The notes under the pieces: generated by a model
What the model saw: the letters and a program-made list of their open reading frames with translations, nothing else
What the model was told of the DNA's origin: nothing
The model's database searches: none
Shown: piece by piece, positions 44,191 through 60,872 of the stretch
Position numbering within the stretch: the stretch's first letter is position 1
How the letters are laid out: each line of letters starts with the position of its first letter
Assembly (NCBI RefSeq): GCF_015326965.1
Contig: NZ_CP017659.1
Coordinates: 3,724,501 to 3,788,500 of the forward strand
Origin: Paenibacillus sp. JZ16
Lineage (GTDB): Bacteria > Bacillota > Bacilli > Paenibacillales > Paenibacillaceae
Length of the DNA: 64,000 nt
Direction: 5' to 3'
Program-made: the position numbers and the translations under genes

Positions 44191-44229
44191 AAATGCTCTT
44201 GGCAGCGCCTACGGCACCTCCAAGAGCAT
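44191..44229 (-). terminator. Terminator of the 777-residue surface protein gene
   Basis: On the minus strand ATGCTCTTGG pairs with CCAAGAGCAT around a 17-base loop, followed by six Ts, about 25 bases after the stop codon. Confidence 0.85.
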
Positions 44230-44252
44230 AAATACTATAGATACATTCCGTC

Positions 44253-46586
44253 TTAATGGGCACCCGGATCATAGGGTGGGGTTTCCGGTACAATTGTCCC
44301 CGTATCATAAGAATTCACTTCAAACGTAATAATCTTATCATAGAATACATAATCCTTACGATTTACAAACGGCCCTTTATTATTATTGTATTTATTGATA
44401 CCATACATAGCTGTTCCAACGCCGTTGGCACGTTCTTCATACCAGTTAATGAAGGCATTCACCTCCGTCATGGATAAGTCGTACTCTCTATCGATGCCAT
44501 TTAAAAGGATAAGACGAAGCAAGGCCCGCTCTCCTTCTTGACCATCACCAGGACCGGGAGGATTTACTGCCTTCGGTGTAGCGGAAGCTTCATTTGAATC
44601 GCCACTTTCACCTGCTGCAGTAACCGCGGTAACAATATAATAATATGTAGTGCCATTCATAACATTGCTATCTGTGTAACTGTAAGTATTGCCTGTTACG
44701 GTTCCAATTACAGCATACGGTCCGCCAGATACCGTGGCTCGCTTTACATTAAAGCTTGTGGCGGCATTGTTAGAACTGCTGCTCCAATGTAAAACAACGT
44801 TTTTATTACCGGCAGTAGCAACTAAATTAAATGGTGCCTCTGGAGGCAATTCCCCGCCTTTCCCAAACACATTCCATTCGTAAACTCTTGAATTGGCTCC
44901 CGTGTATTTTAAAACAACTGTCGATACATCTGGTACGGGGGCTGGTAGCGTCTCTACAGCATCATTGGTAGATAGTTCGTATCTTTGCAGCAGGTTATTG
45001 TTTACATCATAAAATTCAACCGCTACTGGATTAGTATACTTTGCAACGACGCCAGAAACCTCAACCGGGGAAGGGAAAGTATACCACACAAATTCCCCAT
45101 TGCTCATGACCTTAGTAGTAGATATATTGTTGTCCGTCAGTTCTCGTGCAATTCCTGTCGGACTGGATATCGATTTGCCTACTTGCAAAGTAACCCAATC
45201 AAGCAAACCTCCCGTGTACTTCGTTGCTTCAATTTTGATACTCTTCTCAGGTGAGTTGCTGCTTTCCCCTGCCTGATTCACCGCAGAAACTACATAATAA
45301 TATGTCGTTCCATTGGTTACGGTGTTATCAGAAAAAGAGGTTCCTTTAACATTCGCAATCACTGCATAAGGACCACCTGGAGAAGTAGCACGCTTAACAT
45401 TGTACGACTCTGCTCCATTTGCCGTCCATTCCAGTTTAGCTACCTGATCACCGCCTTGAATCCAGGTAATCGCTGTTGGCAACGGAGCCGTTAATGGAGC
45501 CGCAAACACATTCCATTCGTAAACTCTCGAATTAGCTCCCGTATATTTCAGCGCAACTGTCGATACACCTTGTACCGGAGCCGGAAGCGTCTGAACTCCA
45601 TCATTGCTTAATAGTTCATATCTTTGCAGTAAGTTATTATTTACATCATAAAACTCAACCGCTACTGGATTAGTATATTTGGCAATGACCGCAGAAATCT
45701 CAACTGGGGCAGGGAAAGTATGCCACACAAATTCCCCATTGCTTATGACCTTTGTAGTAGATATATTGTTATCCGTCAGTTCTCGTGTATTTCCTGTCGG
45801 ATTGGATATCGATTTGCCTACTTGCAAAGTAACCCAATCAAGCAAACCTCCCGTGTACTTCGTTGCTTCAATTTTGATACTCTTCTCAGGCGAGTTGCTG
45901 CTTTCTCCCGCCTGATTAACAGCGGAAACTACATAATAATATGTCGTTCCATTTGTTACGGTGTTATCGGAATATGAGGTTCCTTTAACATTCGCAATCG
46001 TGGCATAAGGTCCACCTGGAGAAGTAGCACGTTTAACATTGTACGATTCTGCTCCATTTGCCGTCCATTCCAGTTTCGCTACTTGATCACCGCCTTGAAT
46101 CCAGGTAATCGCTGTTGGCAACGGAGCCGTTAATGGAGCCGCAAACACATTCCATTCGTAAACTCTCGAATTAGCTCCCGTATATTTCAACGCAACTGAT
46201 GAAACATTTTGTACCGGGGCCGGAAGCGTTTGAACTCCATCACTGCTTAATATTTCATATCTTTGTAGTAAGTTATTATTTACATCATAAAACTCAACAG
46301 CTACTGGGCTACTATATCTTGCAATGACCGCGGAAATCTCCACAGGAGAAGTAAAAGTGTACCAAGCAAGACTTCCGTTAGCCAGAACTACTGAGGTCGA
46401 TGGATCATCGTCTGTCAACTGTGTAGCTATAGAGGATGATTGTCCTACGGAAGATCCAATTTGTACCGTCTCTCCATCCAGTAGCCCACCAGTATACTGA
46501 GTTGCTGCTTCGACTACTGCGGGATTGATAAATGCTAAACTTAAAAACAGAGATAGAATAAGGAATAAATTGCTAGTTTTCTTCAA
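44253..46586 (-). CDS. Secreted repeat protein with discoidin-like and fibronectin III modules
   Basis: A 777-residue exported protein starting at a TTG with GGAGG seven bases upstream. After a signal peptide (residues 1-27), three units alternate: a beta-rich module (YTGGLLDGETVQIG ... EFYDVNNNLLQRYE ... YTGANSRVYEWNVF), possibly discoidin-like, and a fibronectin III module (KLEWTANGAESYNVKRA ... NGTTYYYVVSAVNQAGES). Units 1 and 2 are almost identical. The last 90 residues (from ERALLRLILLNGIDREYD) form a separate C-terminal module that I believe recurs in Paenibacillus secreted proteins. No wall anchor, SLH or enzyme is seen. It probably binds carbohydrate or another surface. It lies between the intact and the decayed csp loci and is AT-rich compared with the housekeeping genes. 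Confidence 0.85.
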   Translation of the reverse strand: MKKTSNLFLILSLFLSLAFINPAVVEAATQYTGGLLDGETVQIGSSVGQSSSIATQLTDDDPSTSVVLANGSLAWYTFTSPVEISAVIARYSSPVAVEFYDVNNNLLQRYEILSSDGVQTLPAPVQNVSSVALKYTGANSRVYEWNVFAAPLTAPLPTAITWIQGGDQVAKLEWTANGAESYNVKRATSPGGPYATIANVKGTSYSDNTVTNGTTYYYVVSAVNQAGESSNSPEKSIKIEATKYTGGLLDWVTLQVGKSISNPTGNTRELTDNNISTTKVISNGEFVWHTFPAPVEISAVIAKYTNPVAVEFYDVNNNLLQRYELLSNDGVQTLPAPVQGVSTVALKYTGANSRVYEWNVFAAPLTAPLPTAITWIQGGDQVAKLEWTANGAESYNVKRATSPGGPYAVIANVKGTSFSDNTVTNGTTYYYVVSAVNQAGESSNSPEKSIKIEATKYTGGLLDWVTLQVGKSISSPTGIARELTDNNISTTKVMSNGEFVWYTFPSPVEVSGVVAKYTNPVAVEFYDVNNNLLQRYELSTNDAVETLPAPVPDVSTVVLKYTGANSRVYEWNVFGKGGELPPEAPFNLVATAGNKNVVLHWSSSSNNAATSFNVKRATVSGGPYAVIGTVTGNTYSYTDSNVMNGTTYYYIVTAVTAAGESGDSNEASATPKAVNPPGPGDGQEGERALLRLILLNGIDREYDLSMTEVNAFINWYEERANGVGTAMYGINKYNNNKGPFVNRKDYVFYDKIITFEVNSYDTGTIVPETPPYDPGAH
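45181..46458 (-). repeat. Tandem 639-base repeat inside the 777-residue gene
   Basis: The sequence beginning ACTTGCAAAGTAACCCAATC at 45181 recurs from 45820, a period of 639 bases (213 codons). Long stretches are identical or differ only at silent positions. The outer edges diverge more, as if the middle were homogenised by recombination. Confidence 0.75.
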
Positions 46587-46778
46587 TTTTTATCCTCCTA
46601 TAGTATTATATTGGTTCTTTTATACTATTAATCTAGCACTTTAATCCATTTTTGTCTATGTATATATTCCTAGTTTCGAGGATTATTTTATTATGACTTC
46701 TATCTTTTATTGCTAAAGGACTTGATTGAAATTCCAGAAGTGTACAAGATTAAAATCAATACTTAAGTTTCGACAAAA

Positions 46779-47105
46779 AAGACCCCCGGAGATCCGGAGT
46801 CTTCGACACAAGTTTTTGAATTGTTTAAACATCCATTCAGTTTTTATGCTGGTCGGCTATTTATAATTTGTCTATTGCGAATCACGAGTGCCTTCAACAA
46901 ATCTCGAATTCTAGGGATTGTACTTTTTTCAGAGTTTTTGAAGCCTATTAGATCGAAGAAATGTTCGAATCCTCCTCGGTCTCAACTAAGACATAACCTT
47001 CTCTGCGTAAAAAAGTGTTATATTATATCCCTCATCCCGACCCACTCCCAAAAAAGATTTTCTTGCAAAACACCTGAAAATTGTCGTCTTTGCTTCTTTT
47101 ACGAA
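46779..47105 (-). pseudogene. Decayed copy of the cold-shock gene with its terminator and leader
   Basis: Between about 46861 and 47010 the DNA follows the csp gene at 43686-43883 base by base with many substitutions and gaps. Shared words include GAGTGCCTTCAAC, ATCTCGAATTCTA, TTGAAGCC, ATAACC and TCTCTGCGT (plus strand). The frame is destroyed, so it is not translated as a cold-shock protein. The terminator hairpin (46779-46803 versus 43597-43620) and the leader (near 47045-47105) are also duplicated. The whole csp locus was therefore copied and then lost function. It is AT-enriched relative to the intact copy. Confidence 0.8.
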
Positions 47106-47129
47106 CGCAAATATTAAATGAGGCAGTGA

Positions 47130-47792
47130 CTATTTTAGACTTCTTTTGTATTCTTTAGCAGGATTACCGAATACAATCCTTTCGGCATCAATATCATTAA
47201 GAACATTAGAACCCATCCCTACAAAAGCATAATCTTCTATTCGAACACGTTCCCTTACTGTCGAATTCAGCCCTATAAATACACCATTAGCCACATTAAT
47301 AAATGATCCTAAGCATGTAGATGCAGCAATAAAGTTGTTACTTTCTAAATTAGTATCGTGTTCCACTACAACATTCGAATTGATAATATTAAAATCTCCT
47401 AATGTTACATTGGCTTGTACAGAACTATGTGATAACACCACATTTCCAAAGCCCATCTTGCAGCTTTTAGAAATATAAGAGTTAGGATGTATAAAATTAC
47501 AAAACTTCTCACGAGGAATATCATAACTCTTCAGCAATTGAACTCTCTCTCTCATTTTATCAGGATTATATAGAGCGTATAGAAATCCAATATCTGAATA
47601 ATGGCTATACATAGCATTTAAATCTCTTGTTTTACACAATATAGGATGGCCATTAATATTTTCACCAAAGGCAGGATCATCAAACGCATAACCCAAAAAT
47701 TCTGCTTTTGCTCCGTAGGACCGATGAGCATCTACAATTTGTTCCGCAATATTAACCGCGGTGCCTTTTCCTCCAATAACTATTATTTTCAT
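47130..47792 (-). CDS. Sugar O/N-acyltransferase, NeuD/PglD family
   Basis: A 220-residue enzyme starting at the ATG at 47792, with AGAGGA upstream. An N-terminal Rossmann-like part (MKIIVIGGKGTAVNIAEQI) is followed by a left-handed beta-helix (about residues 95-200) made of hexapeptide repeats (GFGNVVLSHSSVQANVTLGD, IGLNSTVRERVRIEDY). The end GNPAKEYKRSLK is the usual tail. Enzymes of this family acetylate amino sugars such as bacillosamine or sialic acid. The neighbouring aminotransferase would make the amino sugar, so the two could act in sequence. A longer frame to 47849 overlaps the upstream wbqC-like gene. Confidence 0.85.
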   Translation of the reverse strand: MKIIVIGGKGTAVNIAEQIVDAHRSYGAKAEFLGYAFDDPAFGENINGHPILCKTRDLNAMYSHYSDIGFLYALYNPDKMRERVQLLKSYDIPREKFCNFIHPNSYISKSCKMGFGNVVLSHSSVQANVTLGDFNIINSNVVVEHDTNLESNNFIAASTCLGSFINVANGVFIGLNSTVRERVRIEDYAFVGMGSNVLNDIDAERIVFGNPAKEYKRSLK

Positions 47793-47814
47793 GAGTTCCT
47801 CTCCCATTAAATAA

Positions 47815-48522
47815 CTACTTGAATAATTCATACTTAAGCAGCAATTCACTTATTTCGCTTTTTGAATTAAACATTAGAACATCTATAATTGAAAGATTAG
47901 ATACAAACTCATCATTGTTAAATTGTGGATATCTGATGCCGTTAGTTTTAAGGAAGCTAAGTTGGATACCATTTATATCAAACTGATTTTTCGAATATAA
48001 ATTAGTTCCACCAATTGGATTTATATAATGGTCTCCCTTTAGTAAACTAACTATATCAATAATGGCATCTTCTCCTTTAAGACTAGGATCTCTATTGATT
48101 TCAGACGAGAGTAGCAAAGGAGTCTTAATATCAAGATGCTTACATATTTTAGAAATATGATTGGAAATAAATTCAGAAATATTTTGAGTATTGAACTGAA
48201 ATATATCAGTAATCAAATTCATTGTATCTTTAAAATAAGGCGCTTTTGAATAAAAATACTCTAAACTTTTCAATAATTTCTTACTTTCATTATCAAACTC
48301 CTCCGAGAACTTTCTTTCATTAATATTTAAGGTTGAAGAATCTTTTTTTAAGCTCATTGTAAAGAGGAATGGTTGATCCTTATTTAGTAATCTATTCCGG
48401 TTGATCCATCCTCTATTTATATATTGAACATCATCATATATGACAAACAAATCTGAACAATTAATTAGTTGAAAATAACCGATATATGGAAATAAATATG
48501 GTTGCATTATCCCTACCTTCAT
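47815..48522 (-). CDS. WbqC-like family protein
   Basis: A 235-residue protein beginning MKVGIMQPYLFPYIGYFQLI, the hallmark of the WbqC family (PF08889). A second block is DLFVIYDDVQYINRGWINRN. These genes occur in O-antigen and amino-sugar clusters and may transfer amino acids or related groups to an amino sugar, but no reaction is firmly known to me. Its ATG overlaps the stop of the aminotransferase gene by four bases, and it is followed by the NeuD-like gene, so the three seem to be a coupled sugar-modification set. Confidence 0.85.
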   Translation of the reverse strand: MKVGIMQPYLFPYIGYFQLINCSDLFVIYDDVQYINRGWINRNRLLNKDQPFLFTMSLKKDSSTLNINERKFSEEFDNESKKLLKSLEYFYSKAPYFKDTMNLITDIFQFNTQNISEFISNHISKICKHLDIKTPLLLSSEINRDPSLKGEDAIIDIVSLLKGDHYINPIGGTNLYSKNQFDINGIQLSFLKTNGIRYPQFNNDEFVSNLSIIDVLMFNSKSEISELLLKYELFK

Positions 48523-49601
48523 TTCACCAACGCCTCTTTCACTGTTTGAATAATTCTTCGCTGGTCATTAATATCAAGGGAATCGTACAATGGAAGACAA
48601 AGTATCCTGCTTGAAACTGAATTAGAGACAGGCATGAATCTCGACTCTACATAATCCAACCTATCTAAGGAAGGGTGAAAATATCTTCTTGGAATAATAC
48701 CCTTAAGGGATAGTTGCTCTCTGACAAGCAACAGTGATTGTTCGTCTTCTAATATAATAGGAAAGTAACTAAAGTTATTTGAGCAATTAAGGTTTTGTTT
48801 TTGTAGCTTCACCAGTGGATCAAATTGAAAAGCAGCCTCATATGCCCTGAACAATTTCTCGCGTTTCTCATTAATTTTTTCTATATCATCTAATACGCAA
48901 AGCCCCATAGCCGCTTGAAACTCATTCATTTTTGCATTTATGCCAAGATAGCGCACTCTGTCTGGGCCATCTATTCCAAAGTCAATCATTTTTCGAGCCT
49001 TCACATATAAATCCCTATCCTTAATAATTAAAGCCCCACCTTCAATAGTATGAAATAACTTAGTAGCATGAAAGCTTAGTATAGAGATGTCTCCAAAGTT
49101 TAGGATGCTTTGATTTTTATACCTAACTCCAAAAGCATGAGCAGCGTCATATACCACTTTTAAGTTGTATTCTTTAGCAATTGCCTCGACTTCATTTATG
49201 TCGCAACCATTTCCAAAAACATGCACGGGAACTATCGCTGTTGTTGAATCAGTTATATTTCTTTCAATTTCATCAGGGTTAATATTCAAAGTTTCTTCAT
49301 CTATATCAGTAAATACTGGTTTTAAATCTTCCCACACTAAACTACTTGTAGTAGCGACAAAAGAAAAAGGAGTTGTAATAACTTCTCCTTGTAATCCCAA
49401 TAATTTATAAGCAACGGATAAAGCTAAGGTGCCGTTAGAGACAAGCAGAATGTTCTCTACTCCTAAATATGAGGCTAATCGCCTCTCTAATTCTAATAGT
49501 AATTCGCCGTTATTGGTTAATCTCTCCGAACGGAAGATTTGAGAAACATAGTGATTAAACTTTTCCTCATCAGGCAGATAAGGTTTTGTAACAAATATCA
49601 T
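48519..49601 (-). CDS. DegT/DnrJ/EryC1/StrS-type PLP aminotransferase
   Basis: A 360-residue aminotransferase that converts a nucleotide-linked keto sugar to an amino sugar. The PLP Lys is in LSFHATKLFHTIEGGALI, the cofactor-binding Asp in VVYDAAHAFGV, and VSNGTLALSVAYKLLGL forms the phosphate loop. The C-terminal segment ILCLPLYDSLDINDQRRI is typical. It precedes WbqC- and NeuD-like genes, matching the order of steps amination then acylation. The nucleotide sugar dehydratase expected before it is not in the window, so it must be encoded elsewhere. Confidence 0.9.
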   Translation of the reverse strand: MIFVTKPYLPDEEKFNHYVSQIFRSERLTNNGELLLELERRLASYLGVENILLVSNGTLALSVAYKLLGLQGEVITTPFSFVATTSSLVWEDLKPVFTDIDEETLNINPDEIERNITDSTTAIVPVHVFGNGCDINEVEAIAKEYNLKVVYDAAHAFGVRYKNQSILNFGDISILSFHATKLFHTIEGGALIIKDRDLYVKARKMIDFGIDGPDRVRYLGINAKMNEFQAAMGLCVLDDIEKINEKREKLFRAYEAAFQFDPLVKLQKQNLNCSNNFSYFPIILEDEQSLLLVREQLSLKGIIPRRYFHPSLDRLDYVESRFMPVSNSVSSRILCLPLYDSLDINDQRRIIQTVKEALVK

Positions 49602-49616
49602 CGAGTTTTTCCTTCT

Positions 49617-50981
49617 TTACTTAGTAGGATTAGACCATTGCAGGTTAGAGACAATAGAATCAAACGCAAAGTTATATTGGTCCGCTATAGCTAGTAACAA
49701 TTCCAGTGCATATTTCCTGTTACTTGGCCAAATGTACGTTAGCCTCCAACGTATATAATTAAATATTCTAATTTGCAACCAAAGCTCTAAATCTTCTACA
49801 TTCATTCCTTTTGCCAATGCAAATGTATATAGTCTTTCAAATTCCTCAACGGTAGAAAAATCTCGATCACTTGGCATATTATTTGATAAATTCTCGCCAT
49901 GTACTCTGTAAACTCCGACATGGTTTTCGATAAATGCTACATCACCAAGTAACATCAATTTTAAATATAGAAAAGTATCCTGACTGTACACTTCTTCTAA
50001 AAGACACCCCATACGAATTGCATCATCCTTACGAAACATCGATGTGAGTGTGCTCGGAATTGGTGGATATTTTACTTTTTGATAATTCAAAAAGTAATCG
50101 AGACCATCAACCCTGCTTTCTATATTTAAATTGGTTCCGTTAAAACCTTGTGGGGACTGCGTATTCATAATTTTTACATTAGCAAACACGAGTGAGATAT
50201 CTTGATTAGATTCTAATATTGCTACTGCTTTACTAATATAGTCTGTTTGTGTTAAATAATCATCGTGATTAATAAATAATACATATTTTGCTTGAGCGTA
50301 TTTGTATAATAATTGCTGAGAATTTATGCTCGAACCAAGGTTCACCTTGTTTTGAACGTAACGCACTCTTGAATCGTCTTTATATTCACTCATCACTTCA
50401 AAGGTGCCATCTGTGGAGCAATCATCTGCAATGATGATTTCTAAATTAGAAAAATCCTGCGCCAATACACTATCTATCGCTTCTTTCAAATATTCCTTCA
50501 TGTTATACGTTGGAATTAGAACGCTAACAATTGGGGTAGTCTTGTTATCTAAACATTCCTTCTCTTCTAACGGGATTTCTTTACCCTTACTCGATAGTTT
50601 AACAATTACATCGTTAATTTGTACTATTAGCTCCTCAGAAGCATTTTTTTTTGCATTCTGATAACAATGTAAAGCTCCAACTAAGTCTCCCTTAATTTCA
50701 TGAAAATATCCGAAGTTAAACCAAAGGTCTGGGTTATCTTTATCTAAAGTAAGTCCCATTCGTAATGCTTGCTCAGCACGATTCATATTACCTTCCATAA
50801 TTGCAACTACTGATTCAACCGAATAGATTTCAATATTTCTAGGATCTAATCTCCTATATTCTCTAATAAGATGATTTGCATCATCAAAGCGACCATCTTC
50901 TAAGAGGTTCTCAATATCATTTTTAAATTGATTGTAATAATCACTAATTACATTTACCATGTATAATGATGTCCCTTCCAT
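49617..50981 (-). CDS. Family 2 glycosyltransferase with N-terminal TPR region
   Basis: A 454-residue protein. Residues of about 15-125 are helical TPR-like repeats (LLEDGRFDDANHLIREYRRL, PDLWFNFGYFHEIKGDLVGA). A GT-A domain follows from about 150: VSVLIPTYNMKEYLKEAIDS, IIIADDCSTDGTFEV, and FINHDDYL, the last in place of a DxD. A C-terminal helical part of about 150 residues ends the protein. TPR plus GT2 is frequent in flagellin or peptide glycosyltransferases. The start could also be the ATG at 50960. Its position 15 bases before the aminotransferase gene indicates one operon. Confidence 0.85.
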   Translation of the reverse strand: MEGTSLYMVNVISDYYNQFKNDIENLLEDGRFDDANHLIREYRRLDPRNIEIYSVESVVAIMEGNMNRAEQALRMGLTLDKDNPDLWFNFGYFHEIKGDLVGALHCYQNAKKNASEELIVQINDVIVKLSSKGKEIPLEEKECLDNKTTPIVSVLIPTYNMKEYLKEAIDSVLAQDFSNLEIIIADDCSTDGTFEVMSEYKDDSRVRYVQNKVNLGSSINSQQLLYKYAQAKYVLFINHDDYLTQTDYISKAVAILESNQDISLVFANVKIMNTQSPQGFNGTNLNIESRVDGLDYFLNYQKVKYPPIPSTLTSMFRKDDAIRMGCLLEEVYSQDTFLYLKLMLLGDVAFIENHVGVYRVHGENLSNNMPSDRDFSTVEEFERLYTFALAKGMNVEDLELWLQIRIFNYIRWRLTYIWPSNRKYALELLLAIADQYNFAFDSIVSNLQWSNPTK

Positions 50982-51018
50982 TTAATACTTTAATTTGAAT
51001 GTAATATAGATGCATTAT

Positions 51019-52221
51019 TTATACTTTCATATCCTTTACAAGCACAGACACATGTGCCAGTGAATAGTAATTATTCAACTTAAGCTCTTCAAGAACAGAT
51101 TTGATGTAACGATTATTATGTTCCATAACCTTTGCGTAAGATTGAACAACTCGAATAACTAGTTCATCATCTAATGATTTGTGTTTACCTGATACTCCTA
51201 CTAAATGAATCTTCAATAAAGCGTACAACGTCGCAATAATAACGAATTCATCAAATAAAGAGCTATTCCTACCATCACTGCTTGGAAACAACAAATTATA
51301 TACCAAATTCACTACATAGTTTTCCAAAATATATTCCTTAGTTTGCATATAAGGAAAATAATAATCATTGAAGTTAGTTTTATAACATTCTTTAAACGAA
51401 TCGAAATTTGAATTTTCATCCACTTGATTAAAACCCTCGATCATTTCTTTCATTGTTATTAAATACCTGTCGCTTTCTATCCCTAATTTTGTTCTGTATT
51501 TGATAAGCTCAAAAAGAACTTGTAGTTGAACATCTAAGTTAGTATTTAAGTTACAGATAGAAGCTAGAAAATTGGAATCCTTTAGGTTCGCTTGATATAA
51601 TTCTATTATCTGCGGTATTTTACTCTCATTCGCATTATTTATTTCTGTTTGCAGAGCATTAATAAACATGCCCAACACCAACATGCGGTCCCCTAAGCTT
51701 ATTTGGCGTGATTGCAAGATCTCGATTGCAAGCATACGAACTGGCCAGAAATAACTTTTTATTCCGTTAGATGATTCCGAATCTTGGTATCTATATAGTG
51801 GCCACACTGGATTTATCTCAAAATCAAGTGACTCAAATTCAATTCCATTAGGTTGTAATAATGCAAGTCTGGCGACCTCGGGACACGAAACTCTAGCTGA
51901 AAGTTCTAAATTATCATCAACCTTATTAAGATTCCTTGGGTAACTTTGGCAAGTTACAGACAACGCTTCTTCTCCAAGCTCTTTTTGGATCTGACACCAT
52001 TTATCCTCTGTTAACATGGAACAACAGCCATTACTGCCCATAATAAATCGTGCATACAGTTCGTCACTTTTTATATCACTTGTCTTTATTCGTTTAACAT
52101 TATCTTTTAACTTTGTACGTAACTCATTATCATTTAATTTTTGATATTTTTTATATGTTTTTTTATCGATAGTAACAGTCCACCCTGAACAACAAGTATC
52201 CGCACATTCCCCCCTATACAT
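51019..52221 (-). CDS. fliB: Flagellin lysine N-methylase (FliB-type), N-terminus frameshifted
   Basis: A 400-residue protein with the Cys-rich FliB signature: GECADTCCSGWTVTIDKKT near the start, then GSNGCCSM, WCQIQKEL and SVTCQSYPR. These probably bind a metal cluster used for SAM-dependent methylation of flagellin lysines. The readable frame begins at an ATG at 52221. The expected family start lies in another frame: from ATG 52265 (GGGGAG seven bases upstream) comes MLQGTLIPKYMKDFKCIGG, which would join GECADTCC if the G6 run at 52209-52214 had seven Gs. As given, that frame stops after 43 residues. AAGGA before 52221 could allow a shortened product that keeps the cysteines. It lies between two glycosyltransferase genes near fliD. 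Confidence 0.8.
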   Translation of the reverse strand: MYRGECADTCCSGWTVTIDKKTYKKYQKLNDNELRTKLKDNVKRIKTSDIKSDELYARFIMGSNGCCSMLTEDKWCQIQKELGEEALSVTCQSYPRNLNKVDDNLELSARVSCPEVARLALLQPNGIEFESLDFEINPVWPLYRYQDSESSNGIKSYFWPVRMLAIEILQSRQISLGDRMLVLGMFINALQTEINNANESKIPQIIELYQANLKDSNFLASICNLNTNLDVQLQVLFELIKYRTKLGIESDRYLITMKEMIEGFNQVDENSNFDSFKECYKTNFNDYYFPYMQTKEYILENYVVNLVYNLLFPSSDGRNSSLFDEFVIIATLYALLKIHLVGVSGKHKSLDDELVIRVVQSYAKVMEHNNRYIKSVLEELKLNNYYSLAHVSVLVKDMKV

Positions 52222-52302
52222 TTAAAATCCTTCATATACTTAGGAATTAATGTTCCCTGAAGCATGTTTAATCTCCCCTTTTCTCCAAATACGTTAATAC
52301 TA

Positions 52303-53397
52303 TTATTCATTAGTTATCAGTTGCAATCTATCCATCGCTGGTTTATAGTTTTCCAAGCTGCTTTCTTGATAAGCAGCAATAGCCCCTTTTTTATCTCCAG
52401 TTAATTCTTTGAAAATCCCTAGATTATAGAATGCCTTATAAGATCCAACCCCAGAAACTGTCTCGTATTTTCTTGAATCCGGTTCACCTAGAGCAATACA
52501 CGCTTCAAAAATTCCAGGTATTAAATCAATATGATTAACTGACTTCATTTTTGTTAAGGTACATCCATACAAAAAATATAGATCCGTGTAATCAGGGTAT
52601 CTATCTATCGCTGAATAAAGCAACGCAAGTAATGTCTCGAATTTGGAATTTTCTAGTAATGTCCATCCATACGTTTGGATGATGGTACTATGAAAAATTT
52701 CATTACCATTAGCAGACCTATACGCTTTATTCAAGTAATGTTCTGCTTTGTCATGTTCACCATTAACTGAATATGTCCTACCTATTTGAAAGTTCAAGTA
52801 AGAATCTTCTGGTTTATCTCGTAGTTCAGAAAATAACAATTCTAAATTCCTTTGGATCTTATTATTTCGAGCAACTCTTTCTTTAGAGTAACCATCATGC
52901 ATAACTTTCAATTCAGTATCGAAATATGATAGTGATCTATTTTTAGAGTGTATTTGTTCGTGTACAGCACCTTCAAAAAAAATGTCGGTACTGTTACTGA
53001 ACAATCTGGCTGCCGATGATCTTGTTGTTTCATTATCCTCCGTTTGATTAATTATGCTTAATCTTCCAATCATACTATTATTCTCTACTATAAAATTATA
53101 GCTTCGTTGCAATAATTCTTGTTGATCAGCCACAAGTATTTCATCTGCATCTATCATTAATATAACTGGTTTGCTGGCAATCCTTATGAGTTCGTTACGA
53201 ACCATAGAAAAGCTATTATTCCAGGAAGTTTGTTCTACAATAACCTTTTTGCATTTGGCAATCTCTACTGTTTTATCAGTAGAGCCGGTATCTAGAACAA
53301 TTACTTCTTCTACGTAAGGACTGATCGAATCAATACATTGGGCAATAACGTTTTCTTCATTTTTTGTCATAATACAAGCGGATATTGGCTGCTTCAT
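52303..53397 (-). CDS. Family 2 glycosyltransferase (SunS-like, with TPR tail)
   Basis: A 364-residue protein. The GT-A domain occupies the first 220 residues: ISACIMTKNEENVIAQCIDS, EVIVLDTGSTDKTVEIAK and the metal-binding VILMIDADEIL with a DxD. The C-terminal 140 residues are TPR-like helices (PEDSYLNFQIGRTYSVNGEH, KAEHYLNKAYRSA). This type includes glycosyltransferases acting on peptides or flagellin. It is separated by a terminator from the VWA protein gene, and by about 80 bases from fliB. AGGAG supports the start. Confidence 0.87.
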   Translation of the reverse strand: MKQPISACIMTKNEENVIAQCIDSISPYVEEVIVLDTGSTDKTVEIAKCKKVIVEQTSWNNSFSMVRNELIRIASKPVILMIDADEILVADQQELLQRSYNFIVENNSMIGRLSIINQTEDNETTRSSAARLFSNSTDIFFEGAVHEQIHSKNRSLSYFDTELKVMHDGYSKERVARNNKIQRNLELLFSELRDKPEDSYLNFQIGRTYSVNGEHDKAEHYLNKAYRSANGNEIFHSTIIQTYGWTLLENSKFETLLALLYSAIDRYPDYTDLYFLYGCTLTKMKSVNHIDLIPGIFEACIALGEPDSRKYETVSGVGSYKAFYNLGIFKELTGDKKGAIAAYQESSLENYKPAMDRLQLITNE

Positions 53398-53423
53398 TAA
53401 GTGAATCTCCTATGGATAAATAA

Positions 53424-53462
53424 TAAAAACAGGTGCCTAAATGGCTTAGACACCTGTTTGGG
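53424..53462 (-). terminator. Terminator of the VWA/IPT protein gene
   Basis: On the minus strand AAACAGGTGTCTAA pairs with TTAGGCACCTGTTT (one mismatch) around a five-base loop, followed by TTATT. It directly follows the stop of the VWA protein. Confidence 0.88.
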
Positions 53463-53466
53463 AGCC

Positions 53467-56400
53467 TTATTGATACGTAAACCCTTGTGTTATTATTATA
53501 AATTGACCATCAGGATTAATGACTTTAACATCTACCGGGCCTGTCTTGGAACTAATAGGTAATCTAAACCTTAATTGCTTACTACTTAAAAAAGAAGTCA
53601 GTACTGGAGTTGAATTGTCCACTGACACTTTAGCACCTTCAACAAAGTTATCTCCGTTAACATACACAAACATATTACTGTCTTTTAATCCAGTATTTGG
53701 AGTGATAGAAGTCACTATAGGCGCTGGCTTCATTGGTTTGGGTTCAAATGTTATTCCTTCAGCAAGAGTTATAGATTGGCCATCAGGATTAACCAATCTA
53801 ACCGATACAGTTTCAGGGTTAGACCAAATCGGCACTCTAAAACGTATCTGCTTATCACTTAAATAACTTACTGTAACTTCTTTATCTGCAATAAATGCTT
53901 TTACACCGTATTGCAAATTATTACCATCAAGTAAAACTAATTCTGCTGAGTCCAACACCATATGATTCGGTGTTAATTTCGTGATTACTGGCGGAGGAGG
54001 AAGAATAAATTCCAAGCTACTTGTAGTAAGCTGCCCATCCGGATTTGTCACTGATACTTCAATGGTTTCTGCTTTTGGCCATGATGGTACACGAACGCGA
54101 AGTTGTTTATCAGATAAGAACGATGCCGAGATGGTCTGATTACCAAATTTGACGACTGATTGAGCATTGAAATTCTCACCATTTATATAAACAAATTCTC
54201 CTCCAGTAAGAACGGCCTTATTTGGACTAAGCTCTGTGATTTGAGGTGCTGGCCCAAGTGCTGGAGGAGTAAAAGTAAACGTAGACTCACCCTCCAATCC
54301 ATCTGGATTAATGACTTTAAGAACAACCGCTTCTGGTGCCGTCCATAAAGGAGCCCTCACCCTTAATTGACTATTGCTTAGAAATGAAACTGTTACCTCA
54401 GTACCACCAAAATACACCTTTGCCCCTTGTTTAAAATGATTACCATTAATGAAGACAAAGTACCCACCTGTCATCTCACCAGAGTCAGGAGACAACGACA
54501 AAATTGCAGGGGCTGGATCTGGAGCTGGGTTTGTAAAGTGAAGGGATTGATTTAATACATGACTCTGGCCATCGGGATTCATTACTTTAACATCAACAGT
54601 CTCCTCTTGGCTCCATGTTGGTGCTCTAAAGCGAAGCTGCTGAGGACTGAGAAAAGATACAGACGAAAGTTTGAAATCATTCAGCCATACACTTGCACCA
54701 TTCTGGAAGTTTTCACCTTCGATAAATATAAACTCGTCACTCGTTCTCACCATTTCATTTGGTGTTATTTTTAGAATTTTAGGTTCTGGTAGTGGCGGTG
54801 GAGCGAGATATTCATAAGCATCACTTAATATGACTTCTCGTTGGTAATTATCAACGATTTTTAAATCTACTTTACCAGCTTCTAATGCCTTAGGAGCCCT
54901 AATAGAAAGCTGTTCATTCGATATAAATGAATGGATAATTTTGGTATTATCAATGTATACTGATAAAGTATTACTAAATTCTTTACCGTTTATATAAATC
55001 ATATTTCCACCTTCAAGCGGACCGCTCGTTGGCGATATAGAACTCACTTCGAATACTGGTGGTAGCTTATAAGTATAGGCCTGCTCCAACTTTGACAACT
55101 TACCATCAGGATTTTTAACAGTTATATCAACAGTTTCTTCAGTCGTCCATTGTGGTGATCTAACCCTCAAATGATTTTTATCTAGGTAGCTTGGCGAAAT
55201 TTCTTTATCCTTAAACAGTACCTTTGACTCGGGCAGAAAATTCTGGCCTTCTATTACAATAAGATCTCCGCCAGTTACCAATCCTTCATTTGGACTGATC
55301 TTCTCAATTATTGGTGCCGGATATTCATAGTTAAATCCTTTTTCTAATGTTGCAATTTGTCCATCAGGATTCATAACAACAACATTGACTGCCTCCGCTC
55401 TACTCCAAACTGGTGTTGAAACTTTCAACTCCGTTGAGGAGACATATTCAGCTTGTAATGTATATGAATTGAATTTAACTACTGCACCATCTCTAAAATG
55501 ATCACCTGTTATCAAAACACTGTCGCCACCAGTAATTAATCCAGATGAAGGGGTTATATCATGAATGACTGGACCTTCCAAATATTCATAAGCATTTGGC
55601 ATCACTGTCTCAGTTCCATCAGGATTAACTACTTGGACATCAACTTTTCCAGGCTCTGATGAACTAGGTGCGATAATTGAAATAAGCGTAGAGGTGGTAC
55701 TTTTTACAACTGCTTCGTTTTCTCCAAGCTTGACCTTCGCACCTTGCATGAAATATTTACCTGATATTTTTATTTCATTGCCACCACCGATAGGGCCTAT
55801 TTTAGGATTAAGGTCAGTAATTTCAGGAATAGCAAAGTATCTATATGTAGTAGTTGCAAACTGTCCATCTTTATTTGTAACTTTTACATCAGTTATACCT
55901 TGCACCCCTGGTGGTGTTGTAATAATAATTTGGGTTGAATCTATAAACTGAACCGAAGTAGCATCTTTCGTTCCGAAAGTGACCTTAGGATTATCAAGGA
56001 AGTTTTCTCCATTTATAGCTACTGTTTCTCCCCCATTAATTAATCCATTATCCTCTACGATTGAGCTGATTATAGGAGCAGGATACGACACTTTTATCAC
56101 AGGGTGGCTCACATTAAAATGATGTGGTGCTCCTGTATAATCTTTATAAGTAACGTTAATTTCTTCTGCACCAACAGATATCGAGCCGGTTGCTGCTCCT
56201 GATTTATGGCGAATTTTATAGTGTAAAGATAATTTCTCTTCCTTAAGCTCATTAAACTTCCATTCAAGTTTATTCCCAATTACTGTTGGCTGTGGAATAT
56301 TGTCCTGATAAGAATTTGGTACTATCTCAAATTCTGGGCTCACAGTGTCAGTGATAATAACATCATAAGCACTAGCCACGCCAATTTCATCAACTATAGC

Positions 56401-57159
56401 TTGATAGATTTCAGCCAATCCCACAGACCCTAAGACAAAATGATGGTGATGAGCAGTCGTAGCCATTTCCTTCATTAACTGGTTTGGAGCGCTAGTCGCG
56501 GGATTTTCATTAGCTTTTAAAAGAGCAATTGTATAAAAAACTACTGATTCACCTTTAGCGGAATTGGCTTGTTCCAGTGCTTTAAGACGTGCATTTTCTA
56601 CTGGAGCGGGTTCAGTAGCTTCGCCATCCGTAAGCAATAATATAACAGGCTGAGCTTCACTTCTATGATTCCTCAATAGCTCACGAGACTTTTCAATTGC
56701 GCTTTGAGTATTTGTTCCCCCACTGGCCTGAATACCATTTATATAGTTTTTCAACTCGTCTGGATTATTTGAAAGTTCTTTGTATTTCACATTACTCGAG
56801 AAATCAACAACACCAACACGATGCTTGGTGAAATCCACTAGATCAATAAAGCCTTTAGCGGCAGCTTTAGCGTTAGCCATCTTATCCTCACCATTGTTGT
56901 TACTCGGTAGCATACTTCCCGATCTATCAATAATTAAGATAATATCATTAGGCTTTACGAAATTCACATCTCCAGATCCTGATACATTCAATTCAACATC
57001 TGCTTCTTCACCAATTAAGATCTCGGATGGTGACACCCTTTTTTCTACGCTTACAGCTTCAGTATTAGCTGCTGCAGCATTGGGTTGAAGGGGAAGCTGA
57101 CTTATAATGATAAAACAGGCTAATATAGAAATTAATACTTTTAATATAGCCTTATGCAT
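53467..57159 (-). CDS. Secreted von Willebrand A protein with ten IPT/TIG repeats
   Basis: A 1230-residue exported protein. The signal peptide is residues 1 to about 30. A VWA domain (about 45-250) has an intact metal site DRSGS in IILIIDRSGSMLP, a TNTQSA segment and LLLTDGEATEP. A beta-sandwich (about 255-355) comes next. Ten IPT/TIG immunoglobulin-like repeats follow to the end, each about 85 residues and opening with a P-x-I-x-x-x-x-P-N/S-x-G pattern (for example APIIEKISPNEGLVTGG). No LPXTG, SLH or transmembrane anchor is seen. Long IPT arrays serve as stalks in adhesins. It sits between the glycosyltransferase block and fliT, with AGGAGG before its ATG and its own terminator. A role on or near the flagellum is suggested only by position. 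Confidence 0.88.
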   Translation of the reverse strand: MHKAILKVLISILACFIIISQLPLQPNAAAANTEAVSVEKRVSPSEILIGEEADVELNVSGSGDVNFVKPNDIILIIDRSGSMLPSNNNGEDKMANAKAAAKGFIDLVDFTKHRVGVVDFSSNVKYKELSNNPDELKNYINGIQASGGTNTQSAIEKSRELLRNHRSEAQPVILLLTDGEATEPAPVENARLKALEQANSAKGESVVFYTIALLKANENPATSAPNQLMKEMATTAHHHHFVLGSVGLAEIYQAIVDEIGVASAYDVIITDTVSPEFEIVPNSYQDNIPQPTVIGNKLEWKFNELKEEKLSLHYKIRHKSGAATGSISVGAEEINVTYKDYTGAPHHFNVSHPVIKVSYPAPIISSIVEDNGLINGGETVAINGENFLDNPKVTFGTKDATSVQFIDSTQIIITTPPGVQGITDVKVTNKDGQFATTTYRYFAIPEITDLNPKIGPIGGGNEIKISGKYFMQGAKVKLGENEAVVKSTTSTLISIIAPSSSEPGKVDVQVVNPDGTETVMPNAYEYLEGPVIHDITPSSGLITGGDSVLITGDHFRDGAVVKFNSYTLQAEYVSSTELKVSTPVWSRAEAVNVVVMNPDGQIATLEKGFNYEYPAPIIEKISPNEGLVTGGDLIVIEGQNFLPESKVLFKDKEISPSYLDKNHLRVRSPQWTTEETVDITVKNPDGKLSKLEQAYTYKLPPVFEVSSISPTSGPLEGGNMIYINGKEFSNTLSVYIDNTKIIHSFISNEQLSIRAPKALEAGKVDLKIVDNYQREVILSDAYEYLAPPPLPEPKILKITPNEMVRTSDEFIFIEGENFQNGASVWLNDFKLSSVSFLSPQQLRFRAPTWSQEETVDVKVMNPDGQSHVLNQSLHFTNPAPDPAPAILSLSPDSGEMTGGYFVFINGNHFKQGAKVYFGGTEVTVSFLSNSQLRVRAPLWTAPEAVVLKVINPDGLEGESTFTFTPPALGPAPQITELSPNKAVLTGGEFVYINGENFNAQSVVKFGNQTISASFLSDKQLRVRVPSWPKAETIEVSVTNPDGQLTTSSLEFILPPPPVITKLTPNHMVLDSAELVLLDGNNLQYGVKAFIADKEVTVSYLSDKQIRFRVPIWSNPETVSVRLVNPDGQSITLAEGITFEPKPMKPAPIVTSITPNTGLKDSNMFVYVNGDNFVEGAKVSVDNSTPVLTSFLSSKQLRFRLPISSKTGPVDVKVINPDGQFIIITQGFTYQ

Positions 57160-57175
57160 TAACTTAACCTCCTAA

Positions 57176-57514
57176 TTACTTTTTGTAATCCAAGAAAAAA
57201 GCATCTACACCATCATAGCTAGATACTTTTCCGTATTGATTCGAAACATGCTTTTTTTTATTAAAATTAAGAAATTGTTCCCCTAAGTTCGATTTCTCTA
57301 ATAGAATCATACTTATGATTTGTTCATGCAACAGTGTTAACTCATGTAACTTCCATTTTTCTTCTTCTGCTATACCCAGTTTTAAGTGGTCATATAGTTG
57401 ATCAATATCTTCAGCTCTAGCCTCATAACTTTCAAAAGTGCGCTCATTCAATATTTCTTTATACATCACTAAAAGACGGCTTATAGTTGGTGAAGTTCCC
57501 GGAATATCAAACAT
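57176..57514 (-). CDS. fliT: FliT-like flagellar protein
   Basis: A 112-residue helical protein with Glu/Lys-rich segments. There is no strong signature, as is usual for FliT, and the identification rests mainly on position after fliS and on size. FliT helps export FliD and in Bacillus acts as an export chaperone. The ATG overlaps the fliS stop by eight bases. It is the last gene of the flaG-fliD-fliS-fliT group before the AT-rich accessory block. Confidence 0.65.
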   Translation of the reverse strand: MFDIPGTSPTISRLLVMYKEILNERTFESYEARAEDIDQLYDHLKLGIAEEEKWKLHELTLLHEQIISMILLEKSNLGEQFLNFNKKKHVSNQYGKVSSYDGVDAFFLDYKK

Positions 57515-57899
57515 TATTGCTACCTCTATCTGATTTAAGAAGCATCAAGGCTTCTTTCCAGGTTTCCAATAACCCTTTAGCAAAGTCCAAAGTTCCATCA
57601 AGTTGACTAACATCTTTATTAATGATGAATTGAGCAATCTGATTGTTATAGAATAAATACAACTGCTTGAGATTTTGAGAAATATCATATTGTAAATCCA
57701 GTGTAATGATCAGTTCATTAAAAATATCTCTGACTTTATATAAGACCTCATTCATCAATTGGTATTCGCCTTGGGAGTATAACTGTCTTGCTTTTAGTAA
57801 TGACTTCACTATTTCCTGATACAGAAGTAAAGTCAATTCTCCCGGGCTTGCTGTCTCCACTTGAACTTTTAGATATTGAAGGTGTTGAGCATTTTGCAT
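57507..57899 (-). CDS. fliS: Flagellar export chaperone FliS
   Basis: A 130-residue four-helix chaperone that binds the C-terminus of flagellin before export. From the ATG at 57899 (TGGAGAG seven bases upstream) it reads MQNAQHLQYLKVQVETASPG, with the family motif ASPGELTLLLYQEIVKSL. The longer frame to 57920 adds seven unconserved residues. In Bacillus FliS also frees FliW from Hag, so it is tied to the csrA-fliW circuit at 60.9-61.5 kb. Confidence 0.93.
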   Translation of the reverse strand: MQNAQHLQYLKVQVETASPGELTLLLYQEIVKSLLKARQLYSQGEYQLMNEVLYKVRDIFNELIITLDLQYDISQNLKQLYLFYNNQIAQFIINKDVSQLDGTLDFAKGLLETWKEALMLLKSDRGSNNV

Positions 57900-57953
57900 G
57901 TTAATCTCTCCATAAGTCATTCTATTAGTGAACTTAAAAAATTCGGGATATTA

Positions 57954-59449
57954 TCAACCCAATTGGGAAGCCAACCATGATCCTTGACTGTTCAGCTTCT
58001 GTAGAGCCTTCTCCATGGCTGTGAATTTCTTGTAATATCTTGTTTCAATGTCTTCTAGTTTCCTCTGCCATTCTGATTCTCTAGTTCCCAACTCCTTCAA
58101 TTGCTTGCCTAGAACACTGTCATCTAGTGCTTCAACGGAACCCGAACCAATTTTCTTTGTGAATTTTGCAAGTTGAGTGTTTACTGCTTCATATACTCGT
58201 TCAGCAAACCCGAGTTCTTGTCTCCTCTTATTCGCATTTTCCGGCGTGTCAGTACCTGTATCAGAAGGTGTCGTAAATAACTGTACTACTTCGTCAAATC
58301 GGTTATTTAGTGCATCAGATAACTTGTTTTCATCAAGTTCCAACTTCCCATTCTCTCGATAATCTGACTTAACAGTGATACCGATTTGAGAAAGAAGTTT
58401 CAACTGATTGGGGTCTGATGTAGCTAAAGGTAAATTCAAGGCTGATCTTAGAGACGAGAGGGTGTCTGTGAGCAAACTATCTCTGTATAATGTTCCTTCT
58501 CTAGCTTTTTTTCCCACAACTCAATCTCTTTATCAGTCATGCTGCTTTTCTCTTCTGTAGTGAGTGGTTGATATGACCGGTTTTTTTTGGTACTAGATGC
58601 ACTAGAGAATAAATCAACAATTTCGTTATACTTCTCAACAAAATTCTTGACTTTATCTGTAACTGCACTTCGATCGGCGACAGCGTTTATAGTTACATCA
58701 CCTGTCCCTCGAAGATTAACCTGAACACCATTAATAGTTATATTATTTGAGCTGGATTTAATTATTTCACTTCCATTTACAGTAAATTCAGCATCTTCCC
58801 CTGTAACGGACAACTTGGCAGGGTCTAAATTAAAAACATCAGCTAAAGCATTAGTAGTTCCTGTCGAAGTAATATTAATCTTAGAGGAACCACCTGAAGT
58901 AGTTGAGCTTAGATACAACACACCAGTAGTTTGGTCTAGACTCGCTTTAACTCCTGTGAGTTTTGAAGAATTATTAATATCCTTTACTATCGATTCCATT
59001 GTAGAGACACCAGGAGTAATCTTAATATTTGTTGAACCAGAAGCACCTGTTATAGTGACAGAACCATCTGCATTTACTGGTTCTGTAGGTGATCCAGTGA
59101 CTCCTCTTCCAACAATAGACGCAGATGTAGCCAAGTTTTTGACTGAAACTTGACTAAAACTAGGGTTAGAACCTCCTGATATTACCTCCAAGATATTGGT
59201 ATTAGAAGATGATGCTTTGACACTCTCAAAGTTTGATTCCAGCCTTAAATCGCTAACTGCTTTCCTAAGATTAAGTAATGCAGTGTTCATTGATCGATAA
59301 TCTTCACGTTGCCACACTGTAAATTGTTTCTGCTTTAAAATATTATCTAATGGCAAACGCTCAGCTCTCATTAAATCTTTAATTAAACTATCCGTATCTA
59401 AGGCACCGCTGAATCCTGTCAACCTAATAGGCCCGTTAATTCCAGCCAT
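57954..59449 (-). pseudogene. fliD: Flagellar cap protein FliD, split by a one-base frameshift
   Basis: The filament cap that folds flagellin at the tip. The N-terminal part (MAGINGPIRLTGFSGALDTD, residues 1-313) reads to ELWEKK and then drifts into a foreign tail ending at 58448. The true sequence resumes in another frame as KAREGTLYRDSLLTDTLSSL and runs to 57954, ending LNSQGSWLASQLG. The junction is the A7 run at 58506-58512. Eight As would restore one frame of about 497 residues, a normal FliD length. Both parts are well conserved. The cause may be a sequencing error, a true loss of swimming, or slippage in the A run that makes some full-length protein. Confidence 0.92.
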
Positions 59450-59463
59450 TTCACTACCCCTCC

Positions 59464-59796
59464 CTACATTTTCTCATCCAAAAACACTCCTACTTGTACG
59501 CACATGTTATACATGATATCAAGCATCTTCTCTTTTGGTATTTCCCTTATCACTTCTTCTGTCTCATCAGCTACAACAAGTACCATGATAGTCTTTGTTT
59601 TCTCATGTAACTTCACTTGAATATGGGTACCAGACTCGACAAGTTTCTTATTTATCTTATCAGTCAATTCATTTACGGTATGGTCACCTTTATTTTTGTT
59701 AGTTTCTGTCTCTTTTCTAAAAGACGTATTGGAGGAGAGATTTTCTTTCAGCCCTGATATAAGATTCGTAGGCGAAGTGCTTTGATCAACCCTCAC
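59464..59796 (-). CDS. flaG: FlaG family flagellar protein
   Basis: A 110-residue protein of the FlaG/YvyC family. The C-terminal half carries the family pattern VKLHEKTKTIMVLVVADETE followed by EVIREIPKEKMLDIM. The N-terminal half is polar and disordered (Ser, Thr, Lys, Asn). The start is a GTG with AGGAGG eight bases upstream. It stands between the hag terminator and fliD, as in Bacillus. FlaG influences filament length. Confidence 0.9.
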   Translation of the reverse strand: MRVDQSTSPTNLISGLKENLSSNTSFRKETETNKNKGDHTVNELTDKINKKLVESGTHIQVKLHEKTKTIMVLVVADETEEVIREIPKEKMLDIMYNMCVQVGVFLDEKM

Positions 59797-59828
59797 TTAT
59801 TTACCTCCTAGCACTAAAAGAAATGTTA

Positions 59829-59861
59829 TAAAAAAAGGCCGGCCGGTTCCCCGGCCGGCCT
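59829..59861 (-). terminator. hag terminator
   Basis: On the minus strand an 11-base perfect GC-rich stem (AGGCCGGCCGG with its complement), a four-base loop and six or seven Ts. Such strong terminators are typical after hag. Confidence 0.92.
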
Positions 59862-59871
59862 ATGTCCAAAA

Positions 59872-60705: not shown

Positions 60706-60712
60706 GATAAAA

Positions 60713-60750
60713 TTCCTCCTTGGAATGTGTTGGTGATTAGCATCCTTGCT
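60713..60750 (-). promoter_or_regulatory. Two CsrA-type GGA hairpins in the hag leader
   Basis: On the minus strand AGCA-AGGA-TGCT (60750-60739) and TTCC-AAGGA-GGAA (60725-60713) form hairpins with GGA in the loop. The second contains the Shine-Dalgarno of hag. In Bacillus, CsrA binds two such sites to block hag translation. csrA is the next gene upstream. Confidence 0.65.
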
Positions 60751-60844: not shown

Positions 60845-60872
60845 AGCAGAATATCAATTTCTAAATAAAAAT

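What the first reader, a model, noticed from the sequence alone, without database searches (positions are those of the whole stretch)
47130..57159. Accessory flagellin-modification block inserted between hpf/csp and fliT
In Bacillus, hpf and fliT are neighbours. Here about 13 kb of AT-rich DNA separates them: NeuD-like, WbqC, DegT aminotransferase, two TPR-containing glycosyltransferases, FliB and a giant VWA/IPT protein. The set could make an acylated amino sugar, attach it to flagellin (or another protein) and methylate lysines. I know no described system with exactly this combination.
Basis: partly seen in the sequence, partly recalled or inferred. Interest (0 to 1): 0.75.

Follow-up and report, generated by a model that had tools for sequence, protein, structure and literature searches.

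The report
Swapped flagellar filament cassette with modifiers
In this Paenibacillus, the genes for the flagellar filament and for enzymes that probably decorate it form one block that closely related species carry in other versions, which suggests that these bacteria exchange their flagellar "coat" as a package.

Summary
The VWA/IPT protein, however, is a homologue of CmoA, an extracellular protein needed for motility on hard agar, not a modification enzyme. The interval is a recurrent cargo slot: 40 of 98 measurable genus genomes carry over 5 kb there; 38 of those 40 hold a glycosyltransferase or Maf, 12 hold Maf with NeuB. It is best read as a flagellin-glycosylation slot. Here the cargo is a GmaR/SunS-like TPR glycosyltransferase, FliB (frame broken in this assembly), a second TPR glycosyltransferase, and DegT-WbqC-NeuD, which probably make an N-acylated amino-deoxy sugar. 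The block is part of a larger segment: DNA identity to a sister genome is 91-94% on both sides but drops to at most 75%, or nothing alignable, from 44.3 to 62.2 kb. Hag, FliD and FliS group with P. chitinolyticus and P. lutrae, not with sister species. Most likely the filament genes and their modifiers were replaced as one cassette. Flagellin as substrate is inferred, not shown. New variant of a known kind.

The parts
47130..47849 (-). neuD: NeuD/VioB-family sugar N-acyltransferase (longest ORF; the true start is probably internal)
   Evidence: TIGR03570 141.6 bits, cut-off 160.8; best PDB sequence match VioB 7txp, E 1.8e-17
47815..48522 (-). wbqC: WbqC family protein; fold model resembles BshC
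48519..49601 (-). degT: sugar aminotransferase, nearest DesI
   Evidence: PF01041 293 bits; DesI TIGR04427 257 bits, cut-off 650; best PDB match 2po3, E 8e-55; 60-61% identical to DegT in the same slot of G016 and G001
49617..50981 (-). GT2: N-terminal TPR + family-2 glycosyltransferase (FlmG-like domain order)
   Evidence: PF00535 91 bits at 153-266, TPR_19 at 26-87; full-length relatives at 51-55% in the protein search
51019..52265 (-). fliB: flagellin lysine methylase; reading frame broken near 52,21x at a homopolymer run, inside the CX4CX3CC motif
   Evidence: NF038110 290 bits over the ORF 51019-52221; upstream ATG at 52265 in another frame; frames; intact 96% homologue P0241
52303..53397 (-). 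GT1: family-2 glycosyltransferase + TPR, GmaR/SunS-like
   Evidence: PF00535 61 bits, TPR matches; PDB GmaR 22ao E 3.6e-24, SunS 7msp E 1.8e-23; DAD at residue 83
53467..57159 (-). cmoA homologue: VWA + ten IPT/TIG stretches, N-terminal hydrophobic stretch
   Evidence: homologous to the 1064-aa CmoA ORF of NAIST15-1; after the fliT-position gene in 14 of the 14 genus intervals that hold it, 50 examined
57176..57514 (-). fliT-position small gene
   Evidence: position and size only; no family hit at E<=0.01; relatives in the same position
57507..57920 (-). fliS
   Evidence: PF02561 87.3 bits
57954..59449 (-). fliD, reading frame broken at a homopolymer run near 58,51x (two ORFs, 58448-59449 and 57954-58517)
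   Evidence: homology of the downstream piece to fliD regions of relatives. Gene name by position and homology; no family search was run on it
59464..59796 (-). flaG-position gene
   Evidence: position; homologues in the same position in relatives
59872..60705 (-). hag (flagellin, 277 aa)
   Evidence: genus search
60873..61551 (-). csrA (60873-61109) and fliW (61087-61551)
   Evidence: same order in relatives; names by order and recalled family features
44045..62217 (.). divergent segment: edge against G070 44316 and 62217; against G032 44045 and about 65206 (beyond the window)
   Evidence: blastn segments; gene-by-gene identities
53427..53459 (-). terminator-like hairpin between cmoA and GT1 (15 pairs)
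   Evidence: 13 such sites in the region, 10.4 expected by chance

Best explanation
The block is the modification half of a flagellar filament cassette. The cassette runs from fliW, csrA, hag, flaG, fliD, fliS and the fliT-position gene through cmoA, GT1 and fliB to, in this lineage, GT2-degT-wbqC-neuD. It replaced the resident version between conserved flanks (supported by breakpoints and trees; recombination in the flanks as the route is inferred). Inferred chemistry: DegT aminates a dTDP-4-keto-6-deoxy sugar; WbqC and/or NeuD acylates the new amine; GT1, a cytoplasmic GmaR-type TPR enzyme, puts the first sugar on flagellin Ser/Thr before export; GT2 adds the amino sugar or an inner sugar; FliB, if intact in the living strain, methylates flagellin lysines. 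CmoA is secreted and helps flagellated cells move over hard surfaces; it is not an enzyme of the pathway.
For: Sharp loss of DNA identity against sister genomes at 44.3 and 62.2 kb with 91-94% flanks (G070). Filament tree (hag+fliD piece+fliS) puts the window with P. lutrae and P. chitinolyticus, and rejects a clade with G070, G033 and G024 (p-AU 2.4e-69). GT1 and fliB also are nearer those distant species (50-51%, 54-57%) than G070 (38%, 43%). Same slot: 38 of 40 intervals over 5 kb hold a glycosyltransferase or Maf; Maf and the GT1 cluster largely replace each other (GT1 cluster in 2 of 12 Maf intervals, 23 of 28 others, p 1.7e-4). GT1 resembles GmaR. DegT, NeuD and a genomic dTDP-glucose dehydratase fit an N-acylated 4-amino-6-deoxy sugar. 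All 55 CmoA loci found hold a flagellin match.
Against: No flagellin mass or mutant. GT1 matches SunS about as well as GmaR and scores far below the SunS cut-off. DegT and NeuD are below their equivalog or subfamily cut-offs; rmlA-like genes are below cut-off. The four closest WbqC relatives in the family (43-51%) have polysaccharide-type neighbours (flippase, glycosyltransferase, GNAT, epimerase), not flagellar genes, in the 3.7 kb seen. The GT2-degT-wbqC-neuD set was not seen in any other interval or in the 55 CmoA loci. fliB and fliD are broken as assembled. Other intervals hold LicD, CDP-glycerol transferase and SLH proteins, so some cargo of the slot may serve the wall. Fisher tests ignore relatedness.
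Confidence: 0.6

Rival explanations
1. The sugar genes act on a wall polymer, S-layer protein or exopolysaccharide and only happen to sit in the flagellar region.
For: Close WbqC relatives lie beside polysaccharide genes; in other genomes the slot also carries SLH proteins (17 genomes in the cluster), LicD and CDP-glycerol transferase genes.
Against: GT1 is GmaR-like with TPR; the slot carries Maf+NeuB and, in 6 of 40 intervals, extra flagellin genes; no flippase or polymerase family among the nine proteins scanned.
Confidence: 0.2
2. CmoA, not flagellin, is the protein that GT1 and its partners modify.
For: 12 of 13 CmoA intervals over 5 kb hold the GT1 cluster, and CmoA is in 0 of 12 Maf intervals.
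Against: CmoA occurs without a GT1 match: G010, G012 and NAIST15-1, where it works; GT1-cluster enzymes occur in 13 of 27 intervals over 5 kb that lack CmoA; CmoA is secreted while GT1 and GT2 look cytoplasmic.
Confidence: 0.08
3. The locus is decaying: the breaks in fliB and fliD are real and the block is on its way to relic DNA.
For: Two broken frames about 6.3 kb apart; 15 of 16 genus FliB matches start at profile position 1, only the window's at 12.
Against: Both breaks lie at homopolymer runs, a usual place for assembly error; the other genes of the block are open; an intact FliB 96% identical exists (P0241).
Confidence: 0.1

Closest known systems
Flagellin glycosylation islands of Geobacillus, Clostridium and Enterobacteriaceae (PMC5109656, PMC13317340, PMC4875605)
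   Same: Variable, low-GC sets of glycosyltransferase and sugar genes inside the flagellar locus; FliB with glycosyltransferases in a few
   Different: Geobacillus islands lie between flaA2 and flaG; here the slot is between the fliT position and csp/hpf, CmoA is included, and the filament genes themselves are exchanged with it
CmoA locus of Paenibacillus sp. NAIST15-1 (PMC5072692)
   Same: VWA + IPT/TIG protein after fliS and a small gene; in NAIST15-1 fliB follows cmoA
   Different: NAIST15-1 has no GT1 match in its locus; the window adds five further genes besides fliB after cmoA
P. alvei CCM 2051T flagellin glycosylation island (Janesch 2016; not held, recalled)
   Same: Two GT1-like glycosyltransferase genes right after cmoA and before csp-hpf in the P. 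alvei DSM 29 locus; taken to be the same strain (recalled)
   Different: No fliB, DegT, WbqC or NeuD match there
GmaR of Listeria (PMC9638930) and FlmG of Caulobacter (PMC7591256)
   Same: TPR + glycosyltransferase proteins acting on flagellin; GT1 has GmaR's domain order, GT2 has FlmG's
   Different: GT1 (364 aa) is too short to hold GmaR's antirepressor part (GmaR is 637 aa); sugars unknown
Viosamine island of Pseudomonas syringae (PMC3927599)
   Same: VioA/VioB-like aminotransferase and acyltransferase with a transferase, for a capping N-acyl amino sugar on flagellin
   Different: No VioS, VioR, ACP or VioM among the six genes here; WbqC is present instead

Membership tests
Flagellin glycosylation island | Glycosyltransferase and sugar genes inside a flagellar locus | tested here: met
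Flagellin glycosylation island | Low GC and variable content between near relatives | tested here: met
Flagellin glycosylation island | Flagellin carries the glycan | not testable with these tools
   needs mass spectrometry
CmoA | VWA domain plus tandem IPT/TIG domains | tested here: met
CmoA | Encoded after fliS and a small gene | tested here: met
CmoA | Secreted, needed for motility on hard agar | not testable with these tools
   hydrophobic N-terminus seen in the translation; no experiment
FliB | Match to NF038110 over its cut-off | tested here: met
   290 bits against 85
FliB | CX4CX3CC [4Fe-4S] motif in one reading frame | tested here: not met
   first cysteine and the other three lie in different frames in this assembly; intact relatives have it
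GmaR | N-terminal glycosyltransferase domain followed by TPR | tested here: met
GmaR | C-terminal antirepressor domain (637-aa protein) | tested here: not met
   GT1 is 364 aa; PDB match 22ao covers query 3-194 only
SunS | Match to TIGR04195 over its cut-off | tested here: not met
   104.8 bits against 350
VioA/VioB amino-sugar pathway | DegT and NeuD over family cut-offs | tested here: inconclusive
   DesI 257 of 650 bits, NeuD_NnaD 141.6 of 160.8; VioB is the best PDB match of NeuD
VioA/VioB amino-sugar pathway | dTDP-4-keto-6-deoxyglucose supply in the genome | tested here: inconclusive
   dehydratase 504.9 bits, over cut-off; best rmlA-like 251.5 bits, below 360.65
BshC (for WbqC) | Shared fold and sequence profile | tested here: inconclusive

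The most novel reading that the evidence does not exclude
Paenibacillus species exchange the whole outer flagellum as one package: flagellin, cap, chaperones, CmoA and the enzymes that decorate flagellin move together between conserved flanks, much like an H-antigen swap. In this strain the package adds a GmaR-type O-glycan capped with an N-(amino)acylated viosamine whose acyl group is attached by WbqC acting as a BshC-like amino-sugar ligase, plus FliB methylation.
Probability: 0.25. Interest if true: 0.7.

Novelty: new variant of a known kind. Interest (0 to 1): 0.5.

Why it matters
It suggests that, around the Paenibacillus lautus group, filament genes and their modifiers are inherited as a swappable unit, and it gives pairs of near-identical genomes with different cassettes (the window's and P. 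lautus G032; P. alvei and NAIST15-1) in which to test what flagellin decoration does. It links CmoA, known from hard-agar motility, to flagellin-modification genes. It also offers a testable enzymatic idea for the WbqC family, for which I saw no assigned reaction in the Pfam entry line or the paper listing.

Tried and rejected
VWA/IPT protein as part of the modification pathway: rejected, CmoA homologue. Simple insertion of the block between fliT and hpf: rejected as the whole story, because divergence from sister genomes reaches back to the flgL stop. Mobile-element insertion: no tRNA in the window and no integrase or transposase family among the nine proteins scanned, so recombination in the flanks is the likelier route; not tested further.

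WbqC function by sequence: no PDB sequence match of worth (best E 0.042, KEX1). A text search for the term gave 12 papers, several unrelated; by title and abstract start none is a functional study of WbqC (none of the 12 was opened). Profile comparison with BshC did not confirm the fold match. Fold prediction of the fliT-position protein was not obtained. Reading PMC5207245 for amino-sugar genes gave no term match.

Phase variation of fliB or fliD: possible, but the runs are short; not favoured and not tested. Split genes over 1-38 kb were only eyeballed in an ORF list; no claim is made.

The P. alvei paper (Janesch 2016) is not held. Its content is recalled, or seen as cited in PMC5109656; the hag tag PAV_2c01710 was seen in PMC3776848, the recalled glycosyltransferase tags in no held paper.

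Papers: passages only of PMC5072692, PMC13317340, PMC3927599, PMC9638930, PMC8598068, PMC3776848, PMC7591256, PMC4875605, PMC2674064; outline, section 5 part 1 and passages of PMC5109656. No paper was read whole.
Full report
What is there. In transcription order: flgL, a 191-aa ORF, fliW, csrA, hag, flaG, fliD (broken), fliS, a fliT-position gene, a 1230-aa VWA/IPT protein, GT1, fliB (broken), GT2, degT, wbqC, neuD, an Fn3 protein, csp, hpf, secA. From GT1 to neuD the gaps are small: 37 bases from GT1 to the upstream ATG of fliB, 37 from fliB to GT2, 15 from GT2 to degT, then two overlaps. This fits one transcript. A 15-pair terminator-like hairpin lies between cmoA and GT1; 13 such sites were found in the scanned region with 10.4 expected by chance.

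The VWA/IPT protein is CmoA-like. CmoA of Paenibacillus sp. NAIST15-1 (1,064 aa, vWFA plus eight IPT/TIG domains, encoded after yvyC-fliD-fliS and a small gene) is extracellular and needed for motility on hard agar (PMC5072692, passages). The NAIST15-1 locus found (L168) holds a 1064-aa ORF in that position, 40% identical to the window's protein. In a scan of named genomes for relatives of the CmoA N-terminus, 55 of 55 distinct loci also hold a flagellin match, 40 a GT1-like match, 17 a fliB match and 0 a wbqC match; records of the window's own or very near genomes may be left out of that scan.

The slot. In the 100 genomes of the genus set, fliS and hpf lie on one contig in 98. They keep order and strand, with a gap of 948 to 31,962 bases, median 2,971; 58 are under 5 kb, 9 are 5-10 kb and 31 over 10 kb. 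I examined 50 of the 100 intervals, the window's included and all 40 over 5 kb among them, and clustered their ORFs. Of the 40, 38 hold a glycosyltransferase cluster or Maf, 12 Maf, 25 the GT1 cluster, 13 CmoA, 6 fliB, 6 an extra flagellin. NeuB is in 12 of 12 Maf intervals and 0 of 28 others. The GT1 cluster is in 2 of 12 Maf intervals and 23 of 28 others (p 1.7e-4); CmoA in 0 of 12 and 13 of 28 (p 0.0035) (families). These tests ignore relatedness. In the first version of the test, on 46 intervals, the GT1-Maf p was 0.0055 and the CmoA-Maf p 0.0088. GT1-type enzymes thus look like an alternative to Maf in a flagellin-modification slot. Other intervals also hold LicD, CDP-glycerol transferase and SLH genes, so not all cargo need act on flagellin. 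FliB occurs in 16 of 100 genus genomes, in 6 inside this interval; WbqC in 5 of 100, only the window's near fliS.

The larger cassette. By SecA, PrfB and Hpf the window's genome belongs with G032 (contig length equal to that of P. lautus NBRC 15380, L191), G033, G069, G070 and G024. FlgL is 73-95% identical in nine other genomes and 44% or less in the other 90, among them the nearest by Hpf (G032: Hpf 99%, FlgL 40%). DNA comparison gives sharp edges: against G070, 91-94% identity outside 44316-62217; against G032, 93-97% outside 44045-65206; inside, only patches of about 75% or less align. In the hag + fliD piece + fliS tree the window joins P. lutrae and P. chitinolyticus (support 97); the filament data reject a clade with G070, G033 and G024 (p-AU 2.4e-69), while SecA+Hpf rejects a pair with P. 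lutrae (p-AU 0.006, with a long branch). These are quick trees with SH-aLRT support only. flgK+flgL place the window with G070, G033 and G024, so there the window's copy looks vertical, and G032, G069 and G052 carry the other type. In P. lutrae cmoA-GT1-fliB stands directly before csp-hpf, so that trio looks like the core and GT2-degT-wbqC-neuD a further module. Equal contig lengths suggest that relatives of GT2 (53%) and WbqC (64%) share one 121,996-base contig elsewhere, which I could not open. P. alvei DSM 29 and NAIST15-1 show the same discordance: flgK 98%, flgL 94%, secA 98%, but fliD 40%, fliS 53%, cmoA 41%. Exchange of flagellar glycosylation islands independently of the genome has precedent in Clostridium botulinum (PMC2674064, passages). 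The Fn3 gene (44253-46586) is 81% identical in G052 at the same place, so the edge there may lie nearer 46.6 kb.

FliB. CX4CX3CC binds the [4Fe-4S] cluster in Salmonella FliB (PMC8598068, passages). In the window the first cysteine and the other three lie in different frames. Intact homologues exist, one of 429 aa at 96%. fliD is broken likewise. Whether these are assembly errors or real cannot be told here.

Natural contrast. NAIST15-1 has fliB but no GT1 match in its locus, and its flagellin ran close to its deduced size; P. alvei has two GT1-like enzymes and no fliB match there, and is cited as needing flagellin glycosylation for assembly and motility (PMC5109656). This agrees with GT1 being the flagellin glycosyltransferase but is only two strains.

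Verdict. Flagellin modification is the best reading of GT1 to neuD, unproven. The block is one state of a recurrent slot inside a swapped filament cassette. Known kind, new variant.

Noticed in passing
58448-58517: fliD is split into two overlapping ORFs at a homopolymer run, like fliB 6 kb away; assembly error or real loss. The P. alvei DSM 29 locus (L166) also shows a split fliD in its ORF list.
   Followed up: partly
44253-46586: A 777-aa Fn3 protein, 81% identical in G052 and 73% in G003 at the same place, where G052 has no other cargo between the fliT position and hpf except a reverse-strand ORF.
   Followed up: partly
61625-62200: A 191-aa ORF between flgL and fliW, where Bacillus subtilis has yviE (recalled); the segment edge against G070 falls just upstream, at the flgL stop.
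   Followed up: no
L166 and L168: P. alvei DSM 29 and Paenibacillus sp. NAIST15-1 are 98% identical in SecA and 94-98% in FlgL and FlgK, but only 40-53% in FliD, FliS and CmoA: a second pair with exchanged filament genes.
   Followed up: partly
L188, L193, L195-L203, L208-L210: CmoA relatives beside flagellin also occur outside Paenibacillus and Cohnella (Anaerovirgula, Geosporobacter, Anoxybacillus, Gottfriedia, Cytobacillus, Domibacillus, Sporosarcina, Brevibacillus, Clostridium punense and others), often between hag and flaG/fliD.
   Followed up: no
59836-59861: Strong 11-pair GC-rich terminator-like hairpin with a T run right after hag, between hag and flaG.
   Followed up: no
G000:C1:3694827-3713928: Sugar-nucleotide genes (dTDP-glucose dehydratase, rmlA-like, two further epimerase-type matches, another nucleotidyltransferase match) cluster about 60-80 kb from the block.
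   Followed up: no
genus search with hag: Many genus genomes have flagellin open frames of 400-800 aa that match the 277-aa window flagellin only at both ends, so a large variable middle.
   Followed up: no
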